A stretch of 64,000 nucleotides of DNA, from positions 1-64,000 of the forward strand of contig NZ_JAUVVF010000004.1 in the NCBI RefSeq assembly GCF_030604785.1, given 5' to 3'. A program made the translations under genes and the position numbers. Origin of the DNA: Paracoccus sp. (in: a-proteobacteria). GTDB lineage: Bacteria > Pseudomonadota > Alphaproteobacteria > Rhodobacterales > Rhodobacteraceae. The notes beneath the pieces were generated by a model that saw only the letters and a list, made by a program, of their open reading frames with translations, was not told the origin of the DNA and did no database searches. How positions within the stretch are numbered: position 1 is the stretch's first letter; each line of letters begins with the position of its first letter. Positions 20,686 to 43,476 of the stretch are shown here, piece after piece.

Positions 20686-21498
20686 TCAGCGCCCGCCCTG
20701 AGCGCGGATCGAGGCGATCAGGGGCAGCATCCCGTCCGCGTCCACCGAGGCGATGACGACGTAATCCAGCGCGTCATCGGTCCAGTAGGCAATGCTGCCA
20801 AAGGCAGCGGGCTCGACCTTCAAATCGTAATCGGGCCGGTCCGGCGGGTGGCGTTCGACGGCAAGCGTGGCCTGACGACCGGCCTCGTCGCGATAGGTGA
20901 AGAACGCCGCCGGGCCGGACGCGTAGCGGGTGTAGCGAACCGCGTCGATGCGGTGGCCGGGCAATTCGAACGCGGCCTCGCGGAAGCGATATTCGAATTC
21001 GTCCGAGATCAGCTGGACTGCCAGGTGAATCTCGTCGGCGGCGAACTGGCGCGTTTCTGCGGTGCTGTCGGCATAGACGAGATGCCCGCCCAAGGCGCGT
21101 TCGACCGGTGCGGGATAGGCCAGCGCGCCGATCGGGGGCTGGTCGGTCAATGCGTGCACGCCCCAGCCGGCGGCAAAGATCATTACGCCAGCCGCCGCGC
21201 TGCGCAGATGCGGGCCCGTCAGCAGGCCGCGCAGCCGCCGCGCGCGCAACCGGCGCGCAAGCTGGCGCTCCAGTCCGGCGATGGCCAGGTTCGCGGGCAG
21301 GCCGTCCGCACGCGCTGCAGCCTCGCGGATCAGCGCGGCGTGGTCGCGCCAGGCCTCGACGGCGTCGCGTGCTTCGGGATCCTGGGCCAAGGCCGCCGCG
21401 ACATCCTGCATGCGTTCGGCGGGCAGCATCCTGTCGGCATAGGCCAGCAATTCGGCATCCTGGCCGGGATCGGGGATTTTGTCTTTCGCTTGTCTCAA
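20686..21498 (-). CDS. Membrane anti-sigma factor
   Basis: This 270-residue protein starts at TTG 21498, whose bases overlap the sigma factor stop as TTGA, with AAGGA upstream; this coupling decides the start. The N-terminal cytoplasmic part (DAELLAYADRMLPAERMQDVAAAL) resembles the sigma-binding domain of anti-sigma factors, and one membrane helix follows near residues 110-130 (SAAAGVMIFAAGWGVHAL). A periplasmic sensor-like domain of about 135 residues ends the protein. No His-Cys-Cys zinc motif is present, so it is not a ZAS-type redox sensor. It probably holds the ECF factor inactive until an envelope signal arrives. Confidence 0.85.
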   Translation of the reverse strand: MRQAKDKIPDPGQDAELLAYADRMLPAERMQDVAAALAQDPEARDAVEAWRDHAALIREAAARADGLPANLAIAGLERQLARRLRARRLRGLLTGPHLRSAAAGVMIFAAGWGVHALTDQPPIGALAYPAPVERALGGHLVYADSTAETRQFAADEIHLAVQLISDEFEYRFREAAFELPGHRIDAVRYTRYASGPAAFFTYRDEAGRQATLAVERHPPDRPDYDLKVEPAAFGSIAYWTDDALDYVVIASVDADGMLPLIASIRAQGGR

Positions 21499-22025
21499 GG
21501 TCGTCCTTCCTTTCGGGTCTCGCCGGGCAGCGGACCGTTCTTGCGCGCCGAAGCGCACCGCCCGCCCACCAGCCGCCTGAGGGCCTCGCGGCCGCGGCCA
21601 AGCCGCGACATGAAGGTGCCAAGCGGCACTTCCAGCGCGCGGGCGGCCTCGGCATAGCTCATCTCGCGCAGGGCGATCAGCACGATGGGCCTTCGCTGCG
21701 CCTCGGGCAGGCTGTCCAGCGCCTGCAGCACCTGGCGCAGTTCGACGCGGTCATGCTGCGTCTCGGGCGTCACGGGCCGGGGCAGGTCGGGGGCGGCATC
21801 GTTGCGGGTCCGGGTGCGGCGCAGATCGCTGACATGGGCGTTGTGCATGATGCGGAACAGCCACGGCCTGAGATCGCTGCCCGGCTGCCAGGTATCCGCC
21901 CGCGCGATGGCGCGGGTCAGCGTCTCCTGCACCAGGTCATCGGCCGAGACCGCGTCGCGTGTCAGCACCAGCGCATAACGGCGCAGGCTCTTCACGTGTC
22001 TGTTCAGCTCGGACCCGATCCCCAC
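21495..22025 (-). CDS. ECF-family RNA polymerase sigma factor
   Basis: The 176-residue protein starts at GTG 22025 with GGAGGTGA upstream. Region 2 is LVQETLTRAIARADTW and LRPWLFRIMHNAHVSDLRR; region 4 is LDSLPEAQRRPIVLIALREMSYAEAARALEVPLGTFMSRLGRGREAL. It has no long inserts or C-terminal extension. It is transcribed with its anti-sigma gene from a promoter (22061-22086) of the same type as those found before several neighbouring units, which suggests autoregulation and a local regulon. I cannot place it in a numbered ECF group by eye. Confidence 0.93.
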   Translation of the reverse strand: MGIGSELNRHVKSLRRYALVLTRDAVSADDLVQETLTRAIARADTWQPGSDLRPWLFRIMHNAHVSDLRRTRTRNDAAPDLPRPVTPETQHDRVELRQVLQALDSLPEAQRRPIVLIALREMSYAEAARALEVPLGTFMSRLGRGREALRRLVGGRCASARKNGPLPGETRKEGRP

Positions 22026-22060
22026 CCCGTCACCTCCGTTTCAACCGCTGCGGTCCCACA

Positions 22061-22086
22061 CATACGCCCCGCCCGCCCCTTTCATC
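22061..22086 (-). promoter_or_regulatory. ECF-type promoter of the sigma/anti-sigma operon
   Basis: On the minus strand the elements read GGGATGAA (core GATGAA at 22086-22081) and CGTATGTG (core CGTATG at 22066-22061) with exactly 14 bases between the cores. It ends about 35 bp upstream of the sigma GTG start. The same pair with the same spacing occurs at 22133, 23760 and 33847. Confidence 0.75.
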
Positions 22087-22132
22087 CCCGCCTGACGCAT
22101 TTTTTTCGGCATCCGGCGGCGGGACGGGCGCG

Positions 22133-22158
22133 GATGATTCATCCCCTCCATGCGTATG
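22133..22158 (+). promoter_or_regulatory. ECF-type promoter of the DUF2333-like gene
   Basis: The elements are GGATGATT (core GATGAT at 22133-22138) and CGTATGTG (core at 22153-22158), again 14 bases apart. The pair lies 53 bp upstream of the ATG at 22212 and about 45 bp from the divergent sigma operon promoter. Confidence 0.75.
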
Positions 22159-22211
22159 TGAGCAGAGGCGACCGCATTGCGGCAAGCCGCCCCGGACAGC
22201 AGGAGGAGCCC

Positions 22212-23207
22212 ATGGATAAGGCCCGCAGCATCGACAGCGCGACGGTCCGGCCGCCCCGGCAGGGATTGCTGCGGCGGTTCCTTGCGTCGGGACCGCGCGT
22301 CGCGCTTCGCCGTCTGGCGCTTGCCCTGCTGCTGGTGGGGGTGCTGTTCTACGGGGTGATCGGCAGTCTTCTCAGCACGGTCGATGCGGATGTGGACTTC
22401 ATGCCCCCCTCGCCCGTCGCGGGGGGCAGCCATGCGGTGAACATGGCCGAGGCACTGATCCTGCGCGAGGTGCAGACCAACCGTTGGGCGCCGAACGACC
22501 CGCCATTCTTTCCGACCGCGATGCATGACAACATGGCCAATTTCCAGCGCGGGATGATGCGCGCGATCGGCCGCTTCACCCTGCAACTCGAAATTCAGGT
22601 CGGTCGGCTGCGCGGCTCTTCGGCCATCGACGAGGATCTCAAGCGCGCCAGCGGCCTGCTGCAATTTCCGACCGATGTCTGGTTGTTCGACTTCAACCAG
22701 TCGCTGCTGCCGGTCCAGCCCGCCGAGGTGCAATACGAGGCCGCCGCGCGCGCCCTGCGCAATTACAACCTGCGCATTGCCGGCAACACCGCCATCTTCG
22801 AGACACGCGCCGACGCTCTGGCGCTGACGGTCGAGCAGATGGCCGACGAACTGGGCGCGCGGGCGGCACTGATCGACGCCCATATCGCCGCCGGGCATTT
22901 CGTCATCAACACGCAGTCCGACGACATCTTCTATGCCAACAAGGGCATGGCTTATGCCAGCTATCTGCTGCTGCGCGAACTGGGGCGCGACTTCGACCGG
23001 GTGATCCAGTCGCAGGGACTGGGCAAGGTCTGGTTCCAGTCGCTGGAAAGCCTGCGCCACGCGGCCGAGCAGCGCCCGGCGGTCGTGCTGAACGGTCGCG
23101 GCGTGAACAGCCTGATCGCCAATCACCTGCAGATCCAGGGCTTCTACCTAAAGCGCGCCATTCTGCAACTGGACGAGGTCGCCCGCGTCATCCGCGCCGG
23201 ACGCTGA
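22212..23207 (+). CDS. DUF2333-like membrane-anchored protein
   Basis: The 331-residue protein has one membrane segment near residues 35-57 (LALALLLVGVLFYGVIGSLL) and a long periplasmic domain. It keeps conserved-looking stretches such as PVAGGSHAVNMAEALILREVQTNRW, FPTAMHDNMANFQRGMMRAIGRF and DDIFYANKGMAYASYLLLRELG. I recognise it as DUF2333-like; no function is known to me. ATG 22212 has GGAGGAG upstream. It stands alone between an ECF-type promoter and a strong terminator, divergent from the sigma operon, so it is probably a direct sigma target. Confidence 0.7.
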   Translation: MDKARSIDSATVRPPRQGLLRRFLASGPRVALRRLALALLLVGVLFYGVIGSLLSTVDADVDFMPPSPVAGGSHAVNMAEALILREVQTNRWAPNDPPFFPTAMHDNMANFQRGMMRAIGRFTLQLEIQVGRLRGSSAIDEDLKRASGLLQFPTDVWLFDFNQSLLPVQPAEVQYEAAARALRNYNLRIAGNTAIFETRADALALTVEQMADELGARAALIDAHIAAGHFVINTQSDDIFYANKGMAYASYLLLRELGRDFDRVIQSQGLGKVWFQSLESLRHAAEQRPAVVLNGRGVNSLIANHLQIQGFYLKRAILQLDEVARVIRAGR

Positions 23208-23220
23208 TCCCGGAAAGGCA

Positions 23221-23246
23221 AAACCCGGACCAAAAGGTCCGGGTTT
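23221..23246. terminator. Bidirectional terminator
   Basis: A perfect 11-bp stem (aaacccggacc / ggtccgggttt) with an AAAA loop lies 13 bp after the DUF2333-like gene and 31 bp before the end of the converging small gene. Confidence 0.85.
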
Positions 23247-23277
23247 GCTTGGTCGGGCCGGCGATGGCGCGGGCTTC

Positions 23278-23646
23278 CTATTCGGCAGCGATGCGGTTGC
23301 GCGCGGCCGCCTCATGGCCGACAGGCTCGACCTCGTCCAGATCGGTGCCGCCCACCAGTTCCAGCGCCTCGCGGCCCAGCCTCTGCATGTGCTCGACATT
23401 CAGCATCAGCATCTGCACGTCCAGCGCCAGCGTGGCGCGCGTCATGCCGATCCGCTTGAGCTGGCGGTCCTGAAGGCGCAGCAGCGCGGCGATGATCAGC
23501 GTGCTGTCGCGCTCACGCAGCCATGCCTCATAGGCGGCGGTGTCCCGGTGGCGCAGCCGGCCCCAGATCAGGGCGATCCGGTCCAGGCTCCAGCGATCAT
23601 GCTTGCGGTCAGTCGCGCCGAACTCGGCAGTCATCGTGTGGGTCAT
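23278..23646 (-). CDS. Hypothetical 122-residue cytoplasmic protein
   Basis: I do not recognise this protein. It is hydrophilic and probably helical, rich in Arg, Leu and Glu, without signal peptide or membrane helix (for example LRERDSTLIIAALLRLQDRQLKRIG). The start at ATG 23646 is well supported by AGGAGG six bases upstream. It has its own terminator side at 23221-23246. Upstream, the weak match GGACGAG-N14-CGTAAT suggests it may belong to the same ECF regulon as its neighbours. Confidence 0.7.
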   Translation of the reverse strand: MTHTMTAEFGATDRKHDRWSLDRIALIWGRLRHRDTAAYEAWLRERDSTLIIAALLRLQDRQLKRIGMTRATLALDVQMLMLNVEHMQRLGREALELVGGTDLDEVEPVGHEAAARNRIAAE

Positions 23647-23672
23647 GCTGTCCTCCTGTGCGTTGCATCCCG

Positions 23673-23698
23673 ATTACGCGCGGGCGGGCGAACTCGTC
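23673..23698 (-). promoter_or_regulatory. Weak ECF-type promoter match before the hypothetical gene
   Basis: On the minus strand GACGAG (23698-23693) and CGTAAT (23678-23673) are separated by 14 bases, matching the spacing of the strong sites but with changes in both boxes. It lies 27 bp before the start codon. Confidence 0.35.
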
Positions 23699-23759
23699 CG
23701 CGCCTCACGCGGTCGTGACCCGGCAGACCGGCCCGGCCGCAATTTTCGCAAAGGGCCGG

Positions 23760-23785
23760 GATGAAAGCGCGCGCATGGGCGTATG
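23760..23785 (+). promoter_or_regulatory. ECF-type promoter of the Mrp antiporter operon
   Basis: The elements are GGGATGAA (core GATGAA at 23760-23765) and CGTATGTG (core at 23780-23785), 14 bases apart. The pair lies about 110 bp upstream of the mrpE start at 23896 and rules out the longer reading of mrpE that would begin at 23761. Confidence 0.75.
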
Positions 23786-23895
23786 TGCCGCGAGAACGCC
23801 GCAGAGGATCGACGCCGACCGGGCCAGCACCGGCCGGCGGATCAAGCTGCGCCCCCACCGAAGCACAAGACCTTGCGACCGACAGGAGGACACGG

Positions 23896-24507
23896 GTGAC
23901 GACCTCGCCACGCCCCGCTGATGCGGCCCGGACAGCCATCACCACCACGACGCAATTGCGCGCGATCCAGCCATCGCCCCCTGTCGGGCCGGTCGAGCGC
24001 GCCGGGTTGCGCGACCGCCTGCGCGGGCTGATCCTGCCCGTCGCCCTGTTGGCGCTGATCTGGTCGCTGCTGACGGATTGGCGGCTGGATGCGTGGGTGT
24101 TCGGCCTGCCCGCGCTGGCCATCGCCGCCGGGCTGCTGCTGGCGATGCCGCATCCGCGCCGCTGGCGGCTGGCCCCGGTGCCGACGCTGCTTTTCGCGCT
24201 GTGGTTTGCTGTGCAGGCCGTGCGCGGCGCGGTCGATGTCGCGCTGCGCGCCGTCGCGCCCCGAATGCCGCTGCGGCCCGGCTTCCGGTCCTGGCGCACT
24301 GCCCTGCCCGAGGGTGCCCCCCGCATCGTTCTGGCCAATGCGGTCACGCTTCTGCCCGGCACGCTCAGCGCCGAGCTCGAGGGCCAGCGGCTTGTCATCC
24401 ACGTTCTGGATGCCGGGCTTGACCACGACCGCGCGCTTGGCGATCTCGAGTCGCGGATCGCGGCAATCTTCGCCGCCCCCCTCCCGGGCCGCGAGGTGGC
24501 GGCATGA
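23896..24507 (+). CDS. mrpE: Mrp-type cation/proton antiporter subunit E
   Basis: The protein is about 203 residues from GTG 23896, which has AGGAGG six bases upstream. It has about 60 residues before or within the first helix, then the MnhE/MrpE pattern of two to three helices and a conserved cytoplasmic end: LFALWFAVQAVRGAVDVALRAV, LANAVTLLPGTLSAEL and LVIHVLD. MrpE is a structural subunit of the membrane antiporter complex that exchanges Na+ or K+ for protons. It is the first gene of an eight-subunit operon with order E-F-G-B-C-D-D-D, overlapping mrpF by ATGA. Confidence 0.9.
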   Translation: MTTSPRPADAARTAITTTTQLRAIQPSPPVGPVERAGLRDRLRGLILPVALLALIWSLLTDWRLDAWVFGLPALAIAAGLLLAMPHPRRWRLAPVPTLLFALWFAVQAVRGAVDVALRAVAPRMPLRPGFRSWRTALPEGAPRIVLANAVTLLPGTLSAELEGQRLVIHVLDAGLDHDRALGDLESRIAAIFAAPLPGREVAA

Positions 24508-24767
24508 ACACCTATCTCGGCCTTGTCGCGCTTGTCCTGCTGGCCAGCCTGCTGGCGGGTCTGGTGCGCGTGATCCGCGGCCCGGCCCCCGAGGCGCGGC
24601 TGATGGCGGGGCAGCTTCTGGGCACAACCGCCGTCGCGATCCTTCTGGTCCTGTGGGGCCTGACCGGGCAATCGGCCTTTCTGGACGTGGCGATGGTCTT
24701 TGCCATCCTGGCCGCCGTCGCGCTGATCGCCTTCGTCGCGCTGTCGAACCAGGGGGCGGGGCGATGA
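24504..24767 (+). CDS. mrpF: Mrp-type antiporter subunit F
   Basis: This 87-residue protein has three membrane helices and the MnhF/MrpF pattern LVRVIRGPAPEARLMAGQLLGTTAVAILL with the conserved RGP turn. It is a small subunit of the cation/proton antiporter. Its ends overlap mrpE and mrpG by four bases each (ATGA). Confidence 0.9.
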   Translation: MNTYLGLVALVLLASLLAGLVRVIRGPAPEARLMAGQLLGTTAVAILLVLWGLTGQSAFLDVAMVFAILAAVALIAFVALSNQGAGR

Positions 24768-25057
24768 TCTCGATGGTTGCCATGGTGCTGATCGGCGCGG
24801 GGGCGCTGTTCTTTCTGGCCGGGACGATCGGTCTGCTGCGCTTTCCGGACCTTCACTGCCAGCTTCACGCGCTGACCAAGGCCGACGGGCTGGGCCTGAC
24901 GCTGATCGGGCTGGGCGCGGCGCTGCTGGCCGGGTCCGTGGGCGATATCGCGCGCATCGCGCTGATCTGCGCCTTCGCCGCCCTGTCGGGGGCCACTTGC
25001 GGCCACCTGATCGCCCGCCATGCGCGGCGCGGCGATGCGGAGGGCCGGGATGTCTGA
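24764..25057 (+). CDS. mrpG: Mrp-type antiporter subunit G
   Basis: The 97-residue protein starts at ATG 24764 and has three membrane helices. The MnhG signature GTIGLLRFPDLHCQLHALTKADGLGLTLI is present (RFPD and H-A-x-TKAD). It overlaps mrpF by four bases and the following gene by eight. Confidence 0.92.
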   Translation: MISMVAMVLIGAGALFFLAGTIGLLRFPDLHCQLHALTKADGLGLTLIGLGAALLAGSVGDIARIALICAFAALSGATCGHLIARHARRGDAEGRDV

Positions 25058-26018
25058 GCCCCTGTTTCTCTTTGACCTGCTGCTGGCGCTGGCGGTGGTG
25101 GCGATCGCGGCTGCTGCGCTGCTTGTGCGGGACGCATTCGCAATGATCGTGCTGTTCGTCGTCTTCGGCCTGCTGTCGGCTCTGGCCTGGGTGCGGCTGG
25201 CCGCGCCGGACGTCGCGCTGGCCGAGGCCGCCATCGGCACCGGCCTGACCGGCGCGCTGCTGTTGAAGACGCTGCATCACCTGCGCGCGCGCGGCATGGC
25301 CGGCTGGGAACCGGGCGCCGCGGCCCCACGCCCGGTGCCGCGGGCCGTTGCCTCGCTGAATGCGGGCCTGACGCTGGCAGTCGTGGCGGGGCTGGGCGTC
25401 GCCATCCTCGGCTCGCCGCTGCGCGTCACGGGGCTGGAGATCGCCGTGGCCGAGGCCATGCCCCTAAGCGGCGTCGACAACCCGGTGACGGCGGTGCTGC
25501 TGAACTTCCGCGCCTATGACACCCTGATGGAGGTCGTGGTGCTGCTGGCCGCAATCATCGTCGTCTGGCAGGTCGAGCGTGGCGCGGACGCCGCACCCGC
25601 GCCCTCTCTCGGCCCGATCTGGCAGGGCTTTGCGCGCCTGACGCTGCCTGCGGCGGCGATCGTCGGAGTCTACCTGCTCTGGGCCGGGGCCGAGGCGCCG
25701 GGCGGAGCCTTTCAGGGCGGCGCCATGCTGGCGGCCATCGGCCTGATGCTGCTGCTGACCGGGCTCTACCGGCCCCATCCGGACCACCGTGCGACGGCGC
25801 GACTGCTGTTCGTTCTGGGTACCGTCGCCTTTGCCGCCGTCGCGCTGCTGGTGGCGGGCGCGGGGCGCGCCAGCTTCGAATATCCGCAAGGCCACGCCAA
25901 GACGCTGATCCTACTGATCGAGGGTCTGGTGACGATCTCCATCGCCGTCACCCTGACCGCCCTGTTCCACGGCCGCGAACCGGCCGCGCTGAAAGGAGAG
26001 CTTCGCCATGACCCCTGA
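25050..26018 (+). CDS. Mrp/Mbh-type subunit: DUF4040 domain fused to MrpB domain
   Basis: The protein is about 322 residues from ATG 25050. The N-terminal third (about 1-85, VRDAFAMIVLFVVFGLLSALAWVRLAAPDVALAEAAIGTG) is the DUF4040/MbhD-like part normally found at the C-terminus of MrpA. The rest is an MnhB/MrpB membrane domain (NPVTAVLLNFRAYDTLMEVVVLL, WAGAEAPGGAFQGGAMLAA). The fusion explains in part why no mrpA gene is present in the operon. The conserved PDVALAEAAIGTG and GGAFQGG loops are intact. About nine to ten helices are expected. Confidence 0.87.
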   Translation: MSEPLFLFDLLLALAVVAIAAAALLVRDAFAMIVLFVVFGLLSALAWVRLAAPDVALAEAAIGTGLTGALLLKTLHHLRARGMAGWEPGAAAPRPVPRAVASLNAGLTLAVVAGLGVAILGSPLRVTGLEIAVAEAMPLSGVDNPVTAVLLNFRAYDTLMEVVVLLAAIIVVWQVERGADAAPAPSLGPIWQGFARLTLPAAAIVGVYLLWAGAEAPGGAFQGGAMLAAIGLMLLLTGLYRPHPDHRATARLLFVLGTVAFAAVALLVAGAGRASFEYPQGHAKTLILLIEGLVTISIAVTLTALFHGREPAALKGELRHDP

Positions 26019-26301
26019 CCTGATCTACGGCGCGGCCGGTCTGGCCGTCTTCGGCATCGGCCTGTGGGGCGCCATCGCGCTGCAGGACCGGATGCGGCGG
26101 CTCTTGGGGCTGAAGCTCTGCTCGGTCGGGGCGGGGTTCGTGCTGATCGTGGGCGCCTGGCGCGAACCGCCCGCCGCGCCCGATCCGGTGCCGCATGCGC
26201 TGGTCATCACCGGCATCGTCGTCATGCTCAGTGCGACCGCCGCCGCGCTGGCCCTGATCCGCCGCCTGCACGATCTGGAGGCCGCCGATGACCGGGCCTG
26301 A
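26008..26301 (+). CDS. mrpC: Mrp-type antiporter subunit C (NuoK-like)
   Basis: This 97-residue, three-helix protein is the NuoK/MnhC homologue of the antiporter. It has the typical FGIGLWGAIALQDRMRRLLGLKL start and HALVITGIVVMLSATAAALALI in the last helix. AAAGGAGAG precedes the ATG, and it overlaps both neighbours (11 and 14 bp). The common acidic residue of NuoK helix 2 is not obvious here. Confidence 0.87.
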   Translation: MTPDLIYGAAGLAVFGIGLWGAIALQDRMRRLLGLKLCSVGAGFVLIVGAWREPPAAPDPVPHALVITGIVVMLSATAAALALIRRLHDLEAADDRA

Positions 26302-27742
26302 CTGGCTGACCCTGTCCATCATGCTGCCGCTTTTCGGAGCGGTTGCCGCCTTCATCCTGCCGCGCGCGGCGGCGGGGCTGGGCCTGGCCACGGTCGCGGC
26401 CACGACGCTTTGCGTGCTGATGATGGCCGACCGGGTGGCGGCCTTCGGCGCGGTGACGGTGCCGCTTGGCGGCTGGGGCGCGCCCTTGGGGATCGAGCTG
26501 CGCGCCGACGGGCTGTCGGTGGCGATGCTGGCCCTGACCGGGATGGTGGGCCTGCTGGTCAGCGTCAGCGCGATCGACGCCTTTGCGGGCGATCGCACCG
26601 CCCGCCAGCGGCACTATTTCTGGCCGCTCTGGCTGCTGCTGCTCAGCGGGCTGAACGGGGTCTATCTGGGAACCGACCTCTTCAACCTCTATGTCATGAT
26701 CGAGATCATCGCCCTGGCCGCCGTCGGCCTGACCGTCTTGGGCGGCACGCGAGAGGCGCTGAGGGCGGGGCTGGACTACGTCTATGCCAGCATCCTGGGC
26801 GCGCTGCTGTTCCTGCTGGGCGTCGGGCTGATCTATCTGCAACTGGGCCGGCTGGACTTTGCCGGCGTTATTGCCGCGCCCCCTTCGGCCGCGATGACGG
26901 CGGCGCTGGCGGTGATGTTCGTGGGGCTTGCGCTGAAGACGGCGCTGTTTCCGCTGCATGTCTGGCTGCCTGCCGCCCATGCCAATGCCGCCGCCCCCGC
27001 CAGCGCGCTGCTGTCGGGGCTTGTGGTCAAGGGCGCGCTTTACATCGTGCTGCGGCTGGCCGGCTACATGCCCGCCCTGACCGAGGACATCCTGACCCTG
27101 ATCGGCCTGATGGGCGCGGGCGCCGTCATCTGGGGCGGCATCCAGGCGCTGCGGGCCGACCGGCTGAAGCTGCTCGTCGCCTGGTCCACCGTCGCGCAGA
27201 TCGGCCTGATATTCGTCGCGCTGGCACGGGCGGGGGAACGGGGCCTCTCTGACAGCTGGAAGGCCGCCGCGCTGCTGATCCTCGCCCACGGGATCGCCAA
27301 GGCCGCGATGTTCCTGGCTGCCGGGCGCATCAAGGACGAGGTCGGCCATGACCGCATCCGCGATCTGGACCGCAGTCCGATCCGCCCGACTCTGGCGCAG
27401 GTCACCTTCGCGCTGGCCGCGATCAACCTGATCGGTCTGCCGCCCAGCCTTGGCTTCATCGGCAAGTGGCAGCTGATGGAGGGCGCGATGATGGCCGGTT
27501 ACTGGCACTGGGTGGCGATCACCATGATCGGCACGCTGTTCTCGGTCGCCTATTTCAGCCGCGTTCTGGCGGGCTTCCTGCGCTTTGACCGCGTGCGGGG
27601 CGGGCCTCTGGCGGAACATCACGGCTGGTCGGGGGCGGATGCCGCGCCGCTGATCCTTGCCGGCGCGGCGGTGCTGCTGGGTCTGGCCGCCGGTCCGATC
27701 ATTGCCTTCATCGACCTTGGCGCAGGGGGGGCCATGCCATGA
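26288..27742 (+). CDS. mrpD: Mrp-type antiporter subunit D (proton-translocating, NuoN/M-like), copy 1
   Basis: The 484-residue protein has about 14 membrane helices of the proton-antiporter family shared with complex I subunits. The residues of the proton path are all visible: Glu139 in YVMIEII, Lys217 in LKTALFPLHVWLP, Lys248 in VVKGALY and Lys393 in GFIGKWQL. It is therefore likely active. It overlaps mrpC and the next antiporter-like gene. Confidence 0.9.
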   Translation: MTGPDWLTLSIMLPLFGAVAAFILPRAAAGLGLATVAATTLCVLMMADRVAAFGAVTVPLGGWGAPLGIELRADGLSVAMLALTGMVGLLVSVSAIDAFAGDRTARQRHYFWPLWLLLLSGLNGVYLGTDLFNLYVMIEIIALAAVGLTVLGGTREALRAGLDYVYASILGALLFLLGVGLIYLQLGRLDFAGVIAAPPSAAMTAALAVMFVGLALKTALFPLHVWLPAAHANAAAPASALLSGLVVKGALYIVLRLAGYMPALTEDILTLIGLMGAGAVIWGGIQALRADRLKLLVAWSTVAQIGLIFVALARAGERGLSDSWKAAALLILAHGIAKAAMFLAAGRIKDEVGHDRIRDLDRSPIRPTLAQVTFALAAINLIGLPPSLGFIGKWQLMEGAMMAGYWHWVAITMIGTLFSVAYFSRVLAGFLRFDRVRGGPLAEHHGWSGADAAPLILAGAAVLLGLAAGPIIAFIDLGAGGAMP

Positions 27743-29220: not shown

Positions 29221-29223
29221 CGC

Positions 29224-30969
29224 ATGACCGGCCTGTCGCTTGCCCTTGTCCTGATCCTGCCCGGCATGCTGGCCGTGGCCCTTGCCTCGCCCGCCCTGCG
29301 CGCGGCGGCCTGGCGGCTGGTGCCGCTGGCCCCCATGCCCGCGCTGGCACTGGCCCTGATGACCGCGCCCGATTCCGCGCCGGTCCTGCGGGGCGACTGG
29401 CTGATTCTGGGGACAGAACTCGGCCTCGACCCCGTCTCGCGGCTGTTTCTGGCCTTCACGTCGGTCCTGTGGATCGCGGCCGGCTCCGCCGCGCGGCACT
29501 GGATGCGCGACGATCCGCGCGCGGCGGCCTTCGGCATCTGCTTCCTGATGGCGATGACGGGCAATCTGGGCCTGATCCTCGCCCGCGACGCCGCCAGCTT
29601 CTACGCCTTCTTCGCGCTGATGAGCTTTTCGTCCTACGGGCTGGTCCTGCACGAGCGGAGCGACAAGGCGCGATCGGCTGCGCGCCTTTACATCGGCTTT
29701 GTCATCGCGGGCGAGCTGGCGCTGTTCGCAGGGCTGGCCCTGGCGGCGGCGCAGGCCGGATCGCTGCTTCTGGCCGATCTGCGCGCATCCGCGGCGGACG
29801 GGCTGGCCGCGTTGCTGCTGTTGGCCGGGTTCGGGGTCAAGCTGGGGCTGGTGCCGCTGCATTTCTGGCTGCCGCCGGCGCATGGCGCAGCGCCGGTCCC
29901 GGCCAGCGCGGTCCTGTCGGGCGCGATGATCAAGGCGGGGCTGTTTGGAATGATCGCCACGCTGCCCCTTGGCGTGACCGCTTTCGACGATCTGGGACCC
30001 TTGGTCATGTCGGCAGGGCTGGTCACGATCTTCGCCGCGCTGCTTCTTGGCGTCCAGCAGACGAACCCGAAGGCCGTTCTGGGCTATTCCAGCGTCAGTC
30101 AGATGGGGATCATCGCGCTCGGCCTTGGTGCGGGCCTGCTGGCGCCCGAGGCCTGGCCCGCGATCCTGCCGGCGCTGGTCTTTCTGGCGGCGCATCATGC
30201 GCTGGCCAAGGGGGCGCTGTTCCTCGGCGTCGGCGCGGTGGCGGCGCAGCCGCTCGGCAGGGGGCGCTGGCTGATGCTGGCGGCGCTGGCCCTGCCCGCG
30301 CTGGTGCTGGCGGGCCTGCCCGCCACCTCGGGCGCCCTGGGAAAAGAGACGCTGAAGACCGCACTGGCCGCAGGCTCGGCCGTGTGGCTTCCTTGGCTGG
30401 TGGTGGCGCTGACACTGTCGGGGATCGCAACGACGCTGCTGATGGCGCGCCACCTGTTCCTGCTGGCCCGCCAGTCTCCGAGCGCGCCGCAGGCCGTGGC
30501 GCCCGAGGCCATCGCCCTGCCCTTCCTCGGGCTGGCCCTAGGCGCGGTCATGCTGCCCGCGCTCTGGCCTTGGCTGGCCGGTCCCGCCGGCGCGCCCCTT
30601 GCCCAAGCCAGCGCCGGGCCGCTCTGGCCCGTGGCAGCGGGGCTGGCCATCGCGCTTGGCGCAGGGCTGGAGGCTCATGCACGGCGGATCGGGCCGGCAG
30701 TCTTTGCCGCGCAGCTTCTGACGCCTTTCCGCGCCGCGCGCGCCCGGCTGACGCGCGTGGTGGCGGTCCGGCAGCGCGGGCTGCGCCGCCTGTCGGTGCA
30801 GGTGCCCCGCCAGATTGCCGCGCGGGCCCTCGACTGGCGGCTGGCCCAGACCGCGATCCTCATCCTCATTGCGCTGGTCATGGCGCTTCATCTGGCTTCG
30901 GGGCCGCGCGCCAGCGTGATCCCCGATCCGTCGGGCACATCGGGTGCCGCAACCGAAGGAAACCTCTGA
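29224..30969 (+). CDS. Mrp-type antiporter-like subunit D, copy 3, lacking the helix-5 Glu
   Basis: The 581-residue protein is a third antiporter-family subunit, with a C-terminal amphipathic stretch and extra helix (about 490-580). Lysines are kept: Lys206 in GVKLGLVPLHFWLP, Lys237 in MIKAGLFGM and Lys374 in ALGKETL. By eye, the helix-5 segment FYAFFALMSFSSYGLVLHE aligns with FLVFYELLTLATYPLVIHR of copy 2, so the essential Glu is Ala131. A Glu appears later in IAGELAL. It may be a structural or altered-coupling subunit. It starts 3 bp after copy 2. Confidence 0.82.
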   Translation: MTGLSLALVLILPGMLAVALASPALRAAAWRLVPLAPMPALALALMTAPDSAPVLRGDWLILGTELGLDPVSRLFLAFTSVLWIAAGSAARHWMRDDPRAAAFGICFLMAMTGNLGLILARDAASFYAFFALMSFSSYGLVLHERSDKARSAARLYIGFVIAGELALFAGLALAAAQAGSLLLADLRASAADGLAALLLLAGFGVKLGLVPLHFWLPPAHGAAPVPASAVLSGAMIKAGLFGMIATLPLGVTAFDDLGPLVMSAGLVTIFAALLLGVQQTNPKAVLGYSSVSQMGIIALGLGAGLLAPEAWPAILPALVFLAAHHALAKGALFLGVGAVAAQPLGRGRWLMLAALALPALVLAGLPATSGALGKETLKTALAAGSAVWLPWLVVALTLSGIATTLLMARHLFLLARQSPSAPQAVAPEAIALPFLGLALGAVMLPALWPWLAGPAGAPLAQASAGPLWPVAAGLAIALGAGLEAHARRIGPAVFAAQLLTPFRAARARLTRVVAVRQRGLRRLSVQVPRQIAARALDWRLAQTAILILIALVMALHLASGPRASVIPDPSGTSGAATEGNL

Positions 30970-30990
30970 CATCACGAAAGGCAGGAGAAC

Positions 30991-33210
30991 ATGCGCCATG
31001 AAAGCAATTTCCCCCGGCAGGACGCCATGACGGACCGGTCGGTGCGACCCGAACCGACGGGCCTGACGCTGCTGCGATACCGGGTCAGCAATTTCCGCTC
31101 GGTCGCGGATTCGGGATGGCTTTCGGCGGATCACGTCACCGCTCTGATCGGCGTGAACGAATCCGGCAAGACGAACCTGCTGCTGCCCCTGTGGAAGCTG
31201 AACCCGGCCAGCGGGGGCGAGCTTCAGCCGACCTCGGATTATCCCAAATCGCTCTTTGCCGCGATCAGGGCGGCGCCGGGGCAGTTCCCGTTTGTCACGG
31301 CAGAATTCGACACCGGCGCGCAGGCCGGGGCGCTGGCCGCGCTTGCGGGCATTCCGGTCGAGCAGGCGCGCCGGGTCAGCGTCTCGCGCTGCCATGACGG
31401 CAGCTATCAGACGGCCCTGCCCGCCGCGCTGCGCGATGAGGGCAAGGCGCTGCGCACCGCCCTGGACGCCCTGCGCGAGGCGCATGCCGCGCTGCGGGCC
31501 GTCCCGGCCGGGACGGATCTGCGGGACGAGGCGCTGCAGCTTGTCGCCCGGCTTCTGACCGAGAGTGACGGTCCCGCGCGCGTCACCGGCAACGACCTGC
31601 GCCTGGCGCGCAACGCGGTCGGCGCGCTGATCCCGGCCATGCCGCCCGCCAGCAGTCTGGTCATTCCCGTCCTGCGCTCGCTGCAGAAGACGCTTGGCCA
31701 GCAGATGGCCGCGATGATGTCGCCCGACCCGGCCAGCCGTGACGAGGTGCGCCAGTGGATCATCGACCACCTGCCGCGCTTCGTCTATTATTCGAATTAC
31801 GGCAATCTCGACAGCGAGATCTACCTGCCCCATGTCGTCGAGAACATGGGCCGCGCCGATCTGGGCGCGAAGGAGGGCGCCAAGGCGCGCACGCTGCGGG
31901 TGCTGTTCGACTTCGTCGGCCTGCAGGCCTCCGAGATCCTGGAACTGGGCCGTGATTTCCGCGACCTGCGCGAGGAAGCCGAACGCCGCCAGATCGCCGA
32001 AGAGGGTCACAAGGCGCGGATCCGCACGCTGTGGCAGCGGGCCAGGGGCGAGGACGAGATCCCCGATGCCGACCTTCTGGCACGGATCGCCGAGGCCAAG
32101 CGCACGCGCTCGATCCTGCTGCAATCGGCGGGGACCAAGCTGACCGAGCGCTTTGGCGAATGGTGGCTGCAGGGCGATTACCGCTTTCGGTTCGAGGCGG
32201 ATGGAAATCATTTCCGGATCTGGGTCTCGGACAGCCGCCGCCCGCAAGAGGTCGAGCTGGAGCACCGCTCGACCGGGCTTCAGTGGTTTCTCAGCTTCTT
32301 TCTGGTCTTCCTGCACGAGGCGCGCGGCCGGCACGAGAACTGCGTCCTGCTGCTGGACGAGCCGGGCCATTCGCTGCACCCGCTGGCACAGCGCGACCTT
32401 TCGGCCTTTTTCGAGGCTTTGGCGGAACGCAACCAGATCCTCTACACGACGCATTCGCCGTTTCTCATCGACGCGGACAGGCTGGCGCGGGCGCGCAAGG
32501 TCTTTGTGGACCGCGACGGCTCCACCCGCGCCAGCGGCGACCTGCTGGAGGGCGAGGGGCGCGACAGCCAGCGCGGGGCGGCCTTTGTGGTGCGCGCCGC
32601 GCTGAACCTTGCCGTGGCCGAGGCCACGCTTGGAGGCGCGCAGCCGGTGCTGGTGCAGGGACAGGTGGAACAGACCTATCTGTCGCTGATCCGCACGCTC
32701 TGCATAGCCTCGGGGCGGTTCCGGCCCCGGCGGGATCTGATCTTTGCGCCGGTCTGCGGGCTGGGGGTCATGCCGGTTCTGGCGCGGATGCTGGGCGGGG
32801 CGGATGCGCGCCCGCCCAGCCTTGTCGTGGACGGCACGGCGGCAGGCGCCGAGCTGGCGGCGGCGATGGCTGTCGCCGATGCCGACCGGCTGGTGCGGCT
32901 TGACGGCCTGTCGGGCCGTGAGGTCGAGACGATCGAGGACCTGCTGCCCAAGGCGCGGCTGGCCGCCCTGCTGGACCGGATCGAGCGCCGCCCCGAGCGC
33001 ATGTTCTCGGACGTGCTGATCGAGTGGCGGCCCTTCATGCCCCAGGTTCTGGAATGGGCGCGCGACGAGGGGATCACCCTGGCCCCCGACTGGCGCCTCA
33101 GGCTGGCCGAAAGGCTGCGGACACACTTGCTGGACGGCGCGGCCAGCGATGAGACGCAGCCGCTGCTTGAGCCGTGGCTGGACCTGATGACCCGGCTTCA
33201 GGAGGGCTGA
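30991..33210 (+). CDS. OLD-like AAA ATPase with a degenerate TOPRIM region
   Basis: The 739-residue protein begins with an ABC/AAA15-type ATPase. Walker A is IGVNESGKTN (Lys60), the segment ELEHRSTGLQWFLSFFLVF is signature-like, Walker B is VLLLDEPGHSLHP (Asp456/Glu457), and the switch His is in YTTHSPFLID. The C-terminal third matches the place of the OLD TOPRIM nuclease, but the first motif is VLVQGQVE instead of the usual VEGxxE, giving Gln556 for Glu. The second acidic motif reads VVDGTAAG (Asp614). Nuclease activity is therefore doubtful. It starts 21 bp after the antiporter operon with AGGAG upstream, and a terminator follows. Confidence 0.8.
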   Translation: MRHESNFPRQDAMTDRSVRPEPTGLTLLRYRVSNFRSVADSGWLSADHVTALIGVNESGKTNLLLPLWKLNPASGGELQPTSDYPKSLFAAIRAAPGQFPFVTAEFDTGAQAGALAALAGIPVEQARRVSVSRCHDGSYQTALPAALRDEGKALRTALDALREAHAALRAVPAGTDLRDEALQLVARLLTESDGPARVTGNDLRLARNAVGALIPAMPPASSLVIPVLRSLQKTLGQQMAAMMSPDPASRDEVRQWIIDHLPRFVYYSNYGNLDSEIYLPHVVENMGRADLGAKEGAKARTLRVLFDFVGLQASEILELGRDFRDLREEAERRQIAEEGHKARIRTLWQRARGEDEIPDADLLARIAEAKRTRSILLQSAGTKLTERFGEWWLQGDYRFRFEADGNHFRIWVSDSRRPQEVELEHRSTGLQWFLSFFLVFLHEARGRHENCVLLLDEPGHSLHPLAQRDLSAFFEALAERNQILYTTHSPFLIDADRLARARKVFVDRDGSTRASGDLLEGEGRDSQRGAAFVVRAALNLAVAEATLGGAQPVLVQGQVEQTYLSLIRTLCIASGRFRPRRDLIFAPVCGLGVMPVLARMLGGADARPPSLVVDGTAAGAELAAAMAVADADRLVRLDGLSGREVETIEDLLPKARLAALLDRIERRPERMFSDVLIEWRPFMPQVLEWARDEGITLAPDWRLRLAERLRTHLLDGAASDETQPLLEPWLDLMTRLQEG

Positions 33211-33227
33211 GCCTGTCCCTGAACCAT

Positions 33228-33256
33228 GCCTGCGGGTTTCTGCCCGCAGGCTTTTT
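33228..33256 (+). terminator. Rho-independent terminator of the Mrp/ATPase operon
   Basis: A perfect 9-bp stem (gcctgcggg / cccgcaggc) with a 6-base loop is followed by TTTTT, 18 bp after the ATPase stop. Confidence 0.92.
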
Positions 33257-33281
33257 CATGGCCTCTTCCTCACATGAAAAA

Positions 33282-33307
33282 AAAGGCCGCCCCGAAGGGC
33301 GGCCTTT
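33282..33307 (-). terminator. Rho-independent terminator of the small membrane protein gene
   Basis: A perfect 11-bp stem (aaaggccgccc / gggcggccttt) with a 4-base loop. Read on the minus strand it is followed by a run of T (eight A on the plus strand, 33277-33284), 21 bp past the end of the membrane protein gene. Confidence 0.92.
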
Positions 33308-33327
33308 AGGGTCGGGCGTGCAGCGCG

Positions 33328-33675
33328 TCAGGACGTGCCGAGCGTATTCCCACCGGTCGACCGATCAGCGGCACGCAGCCACAGCCCCGCGCCCAGGATC
33401 GCCGCAGCGCCAGGCAGCAGCAGCCACATCGCGGCGCCGCCCGTGATGACCGCGAACAGGGCGGCCACTCCTCCGGCGCCGATCATCAGCAGGGAATCGA
33501 CGGCCGAGGGACGCAAGAGCACCTTGGCCGCCACCAGGACGCCCGCCAGTCCCAGCACGAAGGCGAGGCGCGCGCCACCGCCATAGAGGCTGGACACCCA
33601 CGGGCTGATCACGATGAGCAGCGCGCCGAACGAGGCGATGGCTCCGGCGAGGGTGGATTTCGAGATAGCTTTCAT
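33328..33675 (-). CDS. Small four-helix membrane protein of unknown function
   Basis: This 115-residue protein has about four hydrophobic segments (ASFGALLIVISPWVSSLYGGG, LAFVLGLAGVLVAAKVLL, SLLMIGAGGVAALFAVITGG, AAMWLLLPGAAAILGAGLWL). I do not recognise a family. ATG 33675 has GGAAAGGAAAG upstream. It is a single-gene unit with its own terminator. A probable ECF-type promoter (33771-33797) precedes it, divergent from that of the isocitrate dehydrogenase gene. Confidence 0.75.
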   Translation of the reverse strand: MKAISKSTLAGAIASFGALLIVISPWVSSLYGGGARLAFVLGLAGVLVAAKVLLRPSAVDSLLMIGAGGVAALFAVITGGAAMWLLLPGAAAILGAGLWLRAADRSTGGNTLGTS

Positions 33676-33770
33676 CAGTCTTTCCTTTCCTGCGCTTTGG
33701 GGGCCGGATCCTGTCGGCATTGCGGTGGGGCGCTGCCGCTGCCCCGGCCGGGTTCGGGGTTCGTATCGGA

Positions 33771-33797
33771 CATACGCGCCGCACCGCCCGGTTAATC
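33771..33797 (-). promoter_or_regulatory. Probable ECF-type promoter of the small membrane protein
   Basis: On the minus strand GGGGATTAA (core GATTAA at 33797-33792) and CGTATGTC (core CGTATG at 33776-33771) are 15 bases apart. The -10 box is exact, the -35 box differs at one or two bases, and the spacing is one longer than in the strong sites. Confidence 0.5.
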
Positions 33798-33846
33798 CCC
33801 TGAACGGAAACGATTTCGCGCCGACGGATTTTTTTCGCACGCCGCG

Positions 33847-33872
33847 GATGAGACCCGCCCGTCGGGCGTATG
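33847..33872 (+). promoter_or_regulatory. ECF-type promoter of the isocitrate dehydrogenase gene
   Basis: The elements are CGGATGAG (core GATGAG at 33847-33852) and CGTATGTG (core at 33867-33872) with 14 bases between. The next coding start is at 33994. Confidence 0.7.
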
Positions 33873-33993
33873 TGTCGTCGGAGATGCCGGAGAGGACGGC
33901 TCCGTTCCGGCAGGCCTTCGCTGCCTGGAGCCAGCCGGGGCGGCCCGCCCCTTCCATCTCCACCCTGACCTGATCCCATTCCAAGAGGCCTCA

Positions 33994-35481
33994 ATGAACC
34001 AGCTATTCGTTCCCACAGAGCCCTCGGCCCGCGACGACGCGCAGCAGGCCGCGCCCGTCACGGTAGCCCATGGCGACGGCATCGGCCCCGAGATCATGGA
34101 GGCCTGCCTGCGCGTCCTGACGGCGGCCGGCGCCCGTCTGGCCATCGAACGCATCGAGGTCGGGCAAGACGTCTACAAGGCCGGCCACGGCGCTGGCATC
34201 GCCCCCGAGGCCTGGGACAGCCTGCGCCGGACGCGGGTTCTCTACAAGGCGCCCATCACCACGCCCCAGGGCGGCGGCTACAAGAGCCTGAACGTCACCA
34301 TCCGCAAGACTCTGGGGCTTTACGCCAATGTGCGCCCGGTCAGCGCCTACGCGCCCTTTGTCGAGACGCGCCATCCCGACATGGACGTGGTCATCATCCG
34401 CGAGAACGAAGAGGACCTCTATGCCGGTATCGAGCACCGGCAGACCGACGAGGTCTATCAATGCCTGAAACTGATCACGCGCCCCGGCTGCGAGCGCATC
34501 GTTCGCCATGCCTTCGCATATGCCCGCGCGCATGGCCGCAGGAAGGTCACCTGCTTCACCAAGGACAACATCATGAAGCTGACCGACGGCCTGTTCCACC
34601 GGGTCTTCGACGAGATTGCGGAGGATTATCCCGACATCGAGACCGAGCACATGATCGTGGATATCGGGGCCGCGATGCTGGCCGACACGCCCCATGCCTT
34701 TGACGTGATCGTCGTGCCAAACCTCTATGGCGACATCATCAGCGACATCGCGGCGCAGATCTCGGGATCGGTGGGGCTGGCGCCCTCGGCCAATCTGGGC
34801 ACGGATTTCGCCATGTTCGAGGCGGTCCATGGCAGCGCCCCGCGGCTGGCCGGGCTGGACATGGCCAATCCGTCGGGCCTGCTTCTGGCGGGCGCGATGA
34901 TGATGGCGCATCTGGGCCAGATCCGCGTGGCCGAGCGGGTGCGCAACGCCTGGGCGCGCACGATCGAGGACGGCGTTCATACCTTCGACATCTACCGCGA
35001 AGGGCGCTCGCGCCGCGCCGTCGGCACCGCCGATTTCGCCCAGGCCGTCATCGACCGCATGGGCCACCGCCCCAGAAGCCTGCCCGTGGCCCGCTACGCC
35101 GCCGCGCCCGCGATGCCCGCGCCGCCGCCGCGCAACCGGCAGCCCGCGCGCAAGGAACTGGTCGGGATCGATGTCTTTGTCCAGCATGTCGGCACGACCG
35201 AGGCCCTGGCCGACATGCTGCGCCCCCTGGGCCGCGGCCGCCTGTCGCTCGGGATGATCAGCAATCGCGGCGTGAAGGTGTGGCCCGACGGCATGCCCGA
35301 GACGTTCTGCACCGATCACTGGCGCTGCCGCTTCACGGCGGCCGGGCGGGCCTCGATCCGCAAGGCGGACATCATCGACCTGCTGTCCGAACTGGCCCTG
35401 CACGGGGTCGATTTCATCAAGACGGAACATCTTTACACCTTCGATGGCACGCCCGGCTTCTCGGTCGGACAGGGCCAGTAA
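33994..35481 (+). CDS. icd: Isocitrate dehydrogenase, long (Rickettsia/Thermus-like) type
   Basis: The 495-residue protein is a beta-decarboxylating dehydrogenase with a C-terminal extension of about 110 residues (from ELVGIDVFVQHVGTTEALAD), the layout of Rickettsia- and Thermus-type isocitrate dehydrogenases. Motifs are VAHGDGIGPEIMEA, the substrate loop YKSLNVTIRKTLGLYANVRP, IIRENEEDLYAGIEH and the metal/cofactor region PNLYGDIISDIAAQ and EAVHGSAP. AAGAGG precedes ATG 33994. Converting isocitrate to 2-oxoglutarate yields NAD(P)H; the cofactor was not assigned. Being behind an ECF-type promoter suggests a stress-induced isoform beside a housekeeping enzyme elsewhere. Confidence 0.85.
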   Translation: MNQLFVPTEPSARDDAQQAAPVTVAHGDGIGPEIMEACLRVLTAAGARLAIERIEVGQDVYKAGHGAGIAPEAWDSLRRTRVLYKAPITTPQGGGYKSLNVTIRKTLGLYANVRPVSAYAPFVETRHPDMDVVIIRENEEDLYAGIEHRQTDEVYQCLKLITRPGCERIVRHAFAYARAHGRRKVTCFTKDNIMKLTDGLFHRVFDEIAEDYPDIETEHMIVDIGAAMLADTPHAFDVIVVPNLYGDIISDIAAQISGSVGLAPSANLGTDFAMFEAVHGSAPRLAGLDMANPSGLLLAGAMMMAHLGQIRVAERVRNAWARTIEDGVHTFDIYREGRSRRAVGTADFAQAVIDRMGHRPRSLPVARYAAAPAMPAPPPRNRQPARKELVGIDVFVQHVGTTEALADMLRPLGRGRLSLGMISNRGVKVWPDGMPETFCTDHWRCRFTAAGRASIRKADIIDLLSELALHGVDFIKTEHLYTFDGTPGFSVGQGQ

Positions 35482-35489
35482 CCCGCGTC

Positions 35490-35513
35490 GGGAGGCATGC
35501 TCCGTTGCCTCCC
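35490..35513 (+). terminator. Hairpin after icd
   Basis: A perfect 8-bp stem (gggaggca / tgcctccc) with an 8-base loop lies 9 bp after the icd stop. There is no T-run, so it may be an attenuating or mRNA-stabilising hairpin rather than a full stop. Confidence 0.55.
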
Positions 35514-35557
35514 CCCGCACCCCAACCGCAACGTCAACAGCAACAGGAGAACGGAAG

Positions 35558-35818
35558 ATGAAGAAACTCGCCTGCATTCTCGGTGCCGCATCGATGCTTG
35601 CCCTCGGCTCGGCCGCCTTCGCCTATGCCGAGATGGACTCGGACCTGCGCGCGCAACTGATCGAGCTTGGCCTCGACGAGGAAGCGGTCGCGGCGATCGA
35701 CGCCGATCAGGCCGCCGAGGTCCAGGAAATCCTGGCCTCCGAGGCCGAGGAGGACACGATGCGCGACCAGATCCTTGCCCTGATTGCCGCCGAGGAGGCC
35801 GACGAGACCGACGGCTGA
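35558..35818 (+). CDS. Small exported acidic protein, 86 residues
   Basis: From ATG 35558 (AGGAGAACGGAAG upstream) the protein has a clear Sec signal peptide (MKKLACILGAASMLALGSAAFAYA). A mature part of about 62 residues follows with some 24 acidic residues and almost no basic ones (EMDSDLRAQLIELGLDEEAV, EILASEAEEDTMRDQ). It is probably periplasmic and helical. No family is recognised; a cation-binding or EF-hand-free acidic buffer role is only a guess. Hairpins flank it on both sides. An upstream in-frame ATG at 35444 lies inside icd and is not credible. Confidence 0.78.
   Translation: MKKLACILGAASMLALGSAAFAYAEMDSDLRAQLIELGLDEEAVAAIDADQAAEVQEILASEAEEDTMRDQILALIAAEEADETDG

Positions 35819-35967: not shown

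Positions 35968-38012
<2,045 letters not shown>

Positions 38013-38016
<4 letters not shown>

Positions 38017-41303: not shown

Positions 41304-43476
<2,173 letters not shown>

What the first reader, a model, noticed from the sequence alone, without database searches (positions are those of the whole stretch)
20686..35818. A compact ECF sigma regulon written into its own neighbourhood
Four places share GGATG-N16-CGTATG with identical spacing: before the sigma operon (22061-22086, minus), a DUF2333-like gene (22133-22158), the Mrp operon (23760-23785) and icd (33847-33872). Two weaker copies precede the small genes at 33675 and 23646. All lie in intergenic DNA, point at the next gene and sit within about 15 kb of the sigma gene. 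So one ECF factor probably drives a cation antiporter, an ATPase, a TCA enzyme and several small membrane or periplasmic proteins. I do not know this combination as a described system.
Basis: partly seen in the sequence, partly recalled or inferred. Interest (0 to 1): 0.85.

Follow-up and report, generated by a model that had tools for sequence, protein, structure and literature searches.

The report
Sigma factor regulon for sodium antiporter
A stress-type sigma factor sits beside the genes it most likely switches on, chiefly a large sodium/proton pump, and much the same arrangement with the same promoter code recurs in related bacteria, many of them from soda lakes, so it looks like a real and so far undescribed salt or alkali response circuit.

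Summary
GGATG-N16-CGTATG occurs exactly four times in the 3.14 Mb genome, all within 12 kb beside the sigma gene, facing the sigma operon, a DUF2333 gene, the Mrp operon and icd. Both weaker copies have support in relatives. In 32 loci (window, 30 named genomes, one unnamed) a refined core, GGAT[G/T]AA-N14-CGT, precedes sigma in 30 of 32, DUF2333 in 27 of 31, mnhE in 22 of 22 and a small DUF1127-like gene in 16 of 25, but 0 of 121 internal gene starts. Six related Mrp operons in genomes without this sigma lack it near mnhE. So this ECF factor very probably drives itself, DUF2333, the small gene and Mrp-AAA; at least three relatives lack Mrp near sigma. The isocitrate dehydrogenase is a private second isozyme, absent from the nearest relative. 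The anti-sigma has a periplasmic domain modestly resembling the small domain of RseB/MucB. Thirteen of 30 ortholog titles carry soda-lake sample codes, so salt or alkali is the likely stimulus; that is inference. No expression data exist. It is a new member of a known kind.

The parts
21495..22025 (-). ECF sigma factor (GTG start)
   Evidence: Sigma70_r2, Sigma70_r4_2 and PhyR_sigma2 in Pfam; 30 orthologs at 63-93% identity
20686..21498 (-). anti-sigma factor, overlapping the sigma stop (TTG start assumed; a longer GTG start at 21558 is possible): cytoplasmic anti-sigma domain, one membrane helix, periplasmic RseB-small-domain-like domain
   Evidence: alignment; zf-HC2 in 20 of 27 aligned proteins, none in the window's own copy; model and fold comparison
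22061..22087 (-). sigma-operon promoter GGATGAAAGGGGCGGGCGGGGCGTATG
   Evidence: core present in 30 of 32 loci
22132..22158 (+). DUF2333 promoter GGATGATTCATCCCCTCCATGCGTATG
   Evidence: core in 27 of 31 loci, the window among the four with a variant
22212..23207 (+). DUF2333 protein, one predicted membrane helix plus helical domain
   Evidence: PF10095; model
23278..23646 (-). small DUF1127-like gene (s122)
   Evidence: 3 of 20 family members weakly match DUF1127, window copy none; alignment
23673..23699 (-). weak promoter of s122, GGACGAG-N14-CGTAAT
   Evidence: core in 16 of 25 orthologous sites, the window not among them
23759..23785 (+). Mrp operon promoter GGATGAAAGCGCGCGCATGGGCGTATG
   Evidence: core in 22 of 22 loci
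23896..30969 (+). Mrp Na+/H+ antiporter operon: E 23896-24507, F 24504-24767, G 24764-25057, fused MbhD-MbhE-MnhB 25020-26018, C 26008-26301, three antiporter-like D subunits 26288-27742, 27739-29220, 29224-30969
   Evidence: Pfam
30991..33210 (+). AAA (OLD/RecF-like) ATPase, last gene of the Mrp operon
   Evidence: PF13304, PF13175; broad AAA hits in PADLOC
33328..33675 (-). small hydrophobic protein (s115)
   Evidence: no Pfam family; 94% identical in P. bogoriensis, 60% in P. tibetensis
33771..33798 (-). weak promoter of s115, GGATTAA-N15-CGTATG
   Evidence: P. tibetensis counterpart
33846..33872 (+). icd promoter GGATGAGACCCGCCCGTCGGGCGTATG
   Evidence: not conserved in P. bogoriensis
33994..35481 (+). 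second isocitrate dehydrogenase (TIGR02924 type)
   Evidence: paralogue check
35558..35818 (+). small acidic protein with a signal-peptide-like start (my reading), possibly co-transcribed with icd
   Evidence: ORF; no Pfam family; placement only

Best explanation
This is a self-contained ECF sigma regulon. The sigma factor is held at the membrane by the anti-sigma encoded next to it. A change in the envelope or periplasm, most likely linked to high sodium or high pH, is sensed through the anti-sigma's periplasmic domain and frees the sigma. Sigma then reads GGAT[G/T]AA-N14-CGT promoters (often CGTATG), which raise its own operon, DUF2333, the DUF1127-like gene and the long Mrp-AAA operon; Mrp expels sodium and takes up protons (general knowledge of the family). 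In this species the small gene at 33675 and a second isocitrate dehydrogenase have joined. Promoter conservation and linkage are shown by comparison; transcription, release from the anti-sigma and the stimulus are inferred.
For: Four exact sites in the genome, all at the locus. Of 30 sigma-ortholog loci 24 hold a strict site and 30 a core site; of the 32 loci of more distant sigma factors 0 and 3 do. In sigma-bearing genomes 30 of 40 exact hits lie on the sigma contig, and 50 of 77 refined hits lie within 15 kb of sigma. Core before sigma 30/32, DUF2333 27/31, mnhE 22/22, s122 16/25; before anti-sigma 0/31, mnhB 0/20, mnhC 0/18, mnhD1 0/17, mnhD2 0/18, mnhD3 0/17; shuffles average 0.04 or less per set. 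Bases that were not selected for (A6, A7, G21, T28) are also conserved, while much of the spacer varies. Six related Mrp operons in five genomes without the sigma have no core near mnhE. In samples of 290-295 family genomes, sigma and DUF2333 occur in the same three genomes. In Roseivivax and Pseudoponticoccus the AAA gene lies far from sigma with its own motif copy. Thirteen of 30 ortholog titles bear sample codes of soda-lake studies (PMC6704655 and PMC6146748, passages).
Against: No expression or binding data. The refined core was derived from the same loci in which it was counted, although controls and shuffles used the same pattern. The 32 loci fall into 22 clusters at 90% sigma identity, so they are not all independent. 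s122 lacks the core in 9 of 25 loci. Mrp is not always beside sigma: some Mrp gene was found in 22 of the 30 named loci; L074, L077 and L079 have about 10 kb on both sides of sigma without one, and L084 about 8 kb on the s122 side, so the Mrp link is not universal. G127 has a second Mrp operon without the motif. The icd site is not found in relatives. The stimulus rests on habitat and on what Mrp does; some carriers are not obviously from soda lakes.
Confidence: 0.87

Rival explanations
1. The promoters are read by another ECF factor, such as the general stress sigma EcfG or one of the ECF paralogues in the genome, and the adjacent sigma is only one more target.
For: The sigma resembles the PhyR/EcfG region-2 family and paralogues at 37-38% identity exist. 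ECF factors of one group can overlap in promoter use (PMC3511301, passages).
Against: The motif near mnhE is absent in related Mrp operons of genomes in which this sigma was not found. 181 of 290 family genomes hold at least one refined hit somewhere, but that is background and partly one repeated sequence. The GGAAC-type EcfG motif (recalled) differs at the -35.
Confidence: 0.07
2. The repeat is a binding site for a regulator other than sigma, for example a dimeric activator encoded nearby.
For: Most of the conserved sites lie in two divergent intergenic regions, a common place for regulators.
Against: The two halves are not inverted or direct repeats of each other. They show a fixed spacing of 14 bases between GGAT[G/T]AA and CGT, point one way, and lie 23-43 bases before sigma starts in 30 of the 31 loci read (L084, at 87, is the exception), as ECF -35/-10 elements do.
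Confidence: 0.03
3. The core regulon is real, but the icd site (and perhaps the s115 site) is a chance match or a recent decay product without function.
For: No icd of this kind was found in P. bogoriensis, and its site gives way there to sequence that I read as IS66-like. The -35 at icd is GGATGAG rather than GGATGAA.
Against: It is an exact match to the strict motif in non-coding DNA, 121 bases before the gene and on the right strand, in a genome with only four such matches.
Confidence: 0.3

Closest known systems
Sigma-E / RseA / RseB envelope stress system
   Same: ECF sigma with a single-pass membrane anti-sigma and a periplasmic fold like the RseB/MucB small domain
   Different: Here the RseB-like domain is part of the anti-sigma itself; the regulon is local and centred on an Mrp antiporter
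Sigma-W of Bacillus subtilis
   Same: ECF sigma whose regulon is induced by alkaline shock and salt shock (PMC3498285, passages)
   Different: Larger regulon (recalled); the word mrp does not occur in that paper's main text; anti-sigma RsiW lacks an RseB-like domain as far as I recall
ECF26 and EcfG (ECF15)-type sigma factors of Alphaproteobacteria
   Same: Region 2 of the PhyR/EcfG type; GGA and CGT elements (recalled for EcfG)
   Different: -35 GGAT[G/T]AA; ECF group not assignable with the tools here; S. meliloti RpoE1/RpoE4 of ECF26 respond to sulfite (PMC3511301, passages)
Mrp (Mnh/Pha) Na+/H+ antiporters
   Same: E, F, G, B, C and D subunits
   Different: MbhD-MbhE-MnhB fused in one protein and three antiporter-like subunits; under a sigma factor's own promoter type

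Membership tests
ECF sigma factors (sigma-70 group 4) | Regions 2 and 4 only, about 180 residues | tested here: met
   176 residues, Sigma70_r2 and Sigma70_r4_2 above cut-off
ECF sigma factors (sigma-70 group 4) | Promoter of its own type before its own gene, with GGA -35 and CGT -10 | tested here: met
   core in 30 of 32 sigma upstream regions; autoregulation itself not tested
ECF sigma factors (sigma-70 group 4) | Cognate anti-sigma in the same operon | tested here: met
   overlapping gene, with relatives beside sigma in the orthologous loci; binding not tested
Class I (zinc or zinc-less) anti-sigma factors | N-terminal anti-sigma domain | tested here: inconclusive
   zf-HC2 matches in 20 of 27 aligned proteins at E up to 0.1, none for the window copy; PDB profile hit 2m0n_A at E 0.0013
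RseB/MucB family | LolA-like large domain plus small domain | tested here: not met
   only the small-domain-like part is seen: 2p4b_A Z 9.5, 95 residues, rmsd 2.6; the part after the membrane helix is about 150 residues, too short for both domains
ECF26 / EcfG groups | Group-specific sequence model | not testable with these tools
   no ECF group library; best NCBIfam PRK12511 below its cut-off, 155 of 185 bits
Mrp antiporter | MnhE, F, G, B, C and D-type subunits in one operon | tested here: met
   Pfam families above cut-off for each
DUF1127 family (s122) | DUF1127 domain | tested here: inconclusive
   3 of 20 members at best E 0.0022, window copy none

The most novel reading that the evidence does not exclude
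A distinct ECF group dedicated to sodium and alkali homeostasis, with a membrane anti-sigma that has swallowed an RseB-like sensor domain, a private promoter code, and modular recruits (dynamin-like GTPase with a free anti-sigma-like domain in marine relatives, a second isocitrate dehydrogenase here), carried by bacteria of soda and salt lakes.
Probability: 0.43. Interest if true: 0.72.

Novelty: new member of a known kind. Interest (0 to 1): 0.6.

Why it matters
It would give a simple answer to how some soda-lake alphaproteobacteria switch on an Mrp sodium pump, with a promoter code clear enough to find targets by eye, and it ties two uncharacterised families (DUF2333 and a DUF1127-like protein) to a testable stress. 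It also offers a natural sigma/promoter pair apparently separate from the common alphaproteobacterial ones.

Tried and rejected
Chance: rejected. A large dispersed regulon: in the own genome neither the refined core nor the one-mismatch sites gave a convincing site between genes outside the locus; the sites I read as before rsfS and at guaB look accidental. In sigma-bearing genomes 27 of 77 refined hits are off the locus (the sigma positions used there were entered by hand from earlier calls). Two of these are the same locus on another contig, three belong to a second cluster in Roseivivax and Pseudoponticoccus, and the other 22 were not followed; 181 of 290 family genomes hold at least one hit as background, part of it one repeated sequence (match list cut).

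Rows dropped: of 62 loci, the 32 with sigma identity of 53% or less were treated as other sigma factors and left out; two of them (L089, L090) were.

DUF2333 fold: the helical model resembles imelysin/EfeM-like proteins at Z 9.4 and 8.7, too weak for a helical bundle; no conclusion. Anti-sigma fold: no Foldseek match at E 0.001 or better. The absence of other families in the fold lists is not taken as evidence. ECF group assignment: the reclassification paper is not held; passages of PMC10880074 on ECF26 gave no matching motif (GGAT and CGTATG do not occur in its main text). Literature: no paper coupling an ECF factor to Mrp as a target was seen in the listings (0 papers; 1; 2; 0; 12 of 62 listed). 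PMC4265319 names MnhE in a table of a screen for genes that affect the S. aureus ECF gene sigS, the other direction (passage). One search listed one paper holding DUF2333 and two on anti-sigma and RseB words; not read. Only the held open library was searched.

Full report
What is there. The window lies in a 3.14 Mb genome (contig C34); the nearest named match of its sigma is Paracoccus bogoriensis at 93%. The sigma gene (21495-22025, minus) and its overlapping anti-sigma (20686-21498, minus) stand back to back with a DUF2333 gene (22212-23207). Next come a small gene, s122 (23278-23646, minus), and back to back with it the Mrp operon (23896-30969), ending in an AAA ATPase (30991-33210). Then follow a small hydrophobic protein, s115 (33328-33675, minus), and back to back with it an isocitrate dehydrogenase (33994-35481).

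The motif. Four exact GGATG-N16-CGTATG sites occur in the whole genome and all are here. A simple coding call places the sigma, Mrp and icd sites between genes with the next gene downstream on the same strand. The same script called the DUF2333 start too early (22134, overlapping the site); I take it as 22212, the ATG where the P. bogoriensis protein also begins. In the orthologous loci the motif resolves into GGAT[G/T]AA-N14-CGT, most often CGTATG before sigma and looser at the other genes. Bases outside the original search string are also conserved (A6, A7, G21 and T28 at 83-95% of 34 exact sites), although the sites were selected only on the other positions; part of this may be shared descent.

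Comparison. Thirty loci with sigma at 63-93% identity were found in named genomes, Rhodobacteraceae by title or by recalled genus; the other 32 matches, at 53% or less, I treat as other sigma factors. A strict site occurs in 24 of the 30 loci and a core site in all 30, against 0 and 3 of the 32 others. DUF2333 lies beside sigma in 29 of 30 (not in L086, whose genome has it elsewhere). Some Mrp gene lies in 22 of 30 loci, on the DUF2333 side in most and on the other side of sigma in L075, L080, L082, L083 and L085-L088. Several of the rest are short contigs, and for L076 the missing piece with both divergent motif copies was found on another contig. But L074, L077 and L079 have about 10 kb on both sides without Mrp, and L084 about 8 kb on one side. 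Counting 32 loci (window, the 30, and G127), the core precedes sigma in 30 of 32, DUF2333 in 27 of 31, mnhE in 22 of 22 and s122 in 16 of 25. It precedes none of 31 anti-sigma, 20 mnhB, 18 mnhC, 17 mnhD1, 18 mnhD2 and 17 mnhD3 starts (121 in all), and 1 of 11 AAA starts, the one (L082) being a locus where AAA stands apart from Mrp. Loci without the core mostly hold a near variant. High opposite-strand counts reflect the divergent neighbour. The 32 sigma proteins make 22 clusters at 90% identity.

Specificity. In 30 sigma-bearing genomes 30 of 40 exact hits lie on the sigma contig; with the refined form 50 of 77 lie within 15 kb of sigma in 31 genomes. In a family sample 3 of 295 genomes have the sigma at E 1e-40 and 3 of 290 have the DUF2333 protein at E 1e-30: the same three. 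The fused MnhB protein is in 8 of 290, those three and five others. That the five were in the sample follows from their handle numbers, as its list of genomes without a match was cut. In these five, six Mrp operons were read with about 3 kb before mnhE; none has the core near mnhE (one hit lies about 2.4 kb upstream). Their MnhB is 42-47% identical to the window's, about as distant as that of the sigma-linked Roseivivax-type operons. Against the simple picture, G127 has a second Mrp operon without motif, though it carries sigma and has both divergent copies at its first Mrp operon.

The second cluster. In Roseivivax jejudonensis (same contig, about 145 kb from sigma) and Pseudoponticoccus marisrubri (another contig) a second cluster holds an s122 paralogue, a dynamin-like GTPase (PF00350 in the Roseivivax copy), a short protein that looks like a free anti-sigma domain (my reading; no Pfam match for the Roseivivax copy), and the AAA gene, with three core sites in the first and two in the second. 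The short gene and AAA each follow a core site in both, the s122 paralogue in the first. This supports AAA as a regulon member in its own right.

icd. For its type (TIGR02924) the own genome shows only one further match, at 34% identity, and P. bogoriensis none at E 1e-30. The genome also has pieces of the usual PRK08299-type enzyme at the ends of two contigs, together covering 402 of 403 model positions, probably one gene cut by the assembly. So the enzyme under the motif is an extra isozyme. In P. bogoriensis the s115 promoter is conserved, but the sequence where the icd promoter would lie gives way to a reading frame that I recognise as IS66-like (recalled) at the contig end. Membership of icd therefore rests on an exact site in one genome.

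Mechanism. The anti-sigma model (mean pLDDT 80, pTM 0.55) has an N-terminal helical domain, one hydrophobic helix and a periplasmic domain whose best comparisons are the small domains of RseB and MucB: 2p4b_A Z 9.5, 95 residues, rmsd 2.6, 10% identity; best Foldseek match 2v42_A, also RseB, at E 0.004, none at 0.001. This is a modest likeness of fold, not proof of function. Salt or alkali as stimulus is inferred from the Mrp target and from habitat: 13 of 30 ortholog titles carry the sample codes CSSed, CSBr, T3Sed10 or B1Sed10, used for soda-lake samples in PMC6704655 and PMC6146748 (passages). That other carriers come from soda or salt lakes is recalled for P. bogoriensis, Roseinatronobacter and Rhodobaculum. 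Soda-lake metagenomes may be over-represented in the collection, so part of this may be sampling. An ECF factor induced by alkaline and salt shock is known in B. subtilis, sigma-W (PMC3498285, passages).

Verdict. It is an ECF sigma with a compact, conserved, self-adjacent regulon, of a known kind, with contents I did not find described in the held library (the last listing was cut at 12 of 62).

Noticed in passing
25020-30969: The Mrp operon has a fused MbhD-MbhE-MnhB subunit and three antiporter-like subunits, with no separate large MnhA seen.
   Followed up: partly
L204:476-5936; L205:6-5497: Second cluster in Roseivivax and Pseudoponticoccus: s122 paralogue, dynamin-like GTPase, a short free anti-sigma-like protein and the AAA ATPase; the last two follow copies of the motif in both.
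   Followed up: partly
35968-43480: GlgE, a TreS-maltokinase fusion and GlgB follow the locus, a trehalose/alpha-glucan set that may also serve osmotic protection; no exact motif before it.
   Followed up: no
L062:3-3074 (-): In P. tibetensis a DabA-type inorganic-carbon transporter (PF10070) with an MnhD-like partner lies near the s115 gene.
   Followed up: no
G000 C44:4-696 and C9:2-637: The usual isocitrate dehydrogenase appears cut over two contig ends, with about 40 shared residues.
   Followed up: no
L203:1-240: IS66-like reading frame (recalled) at the contig end in P. bogoriensis, where the window has the icd promoter.
   Followed up: no
L074, L077, L079, L084: Sigma, DUF2333 and s122 present with core motifs before sigma, but no Mrp genes found in the flank held.
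   Followed up: no
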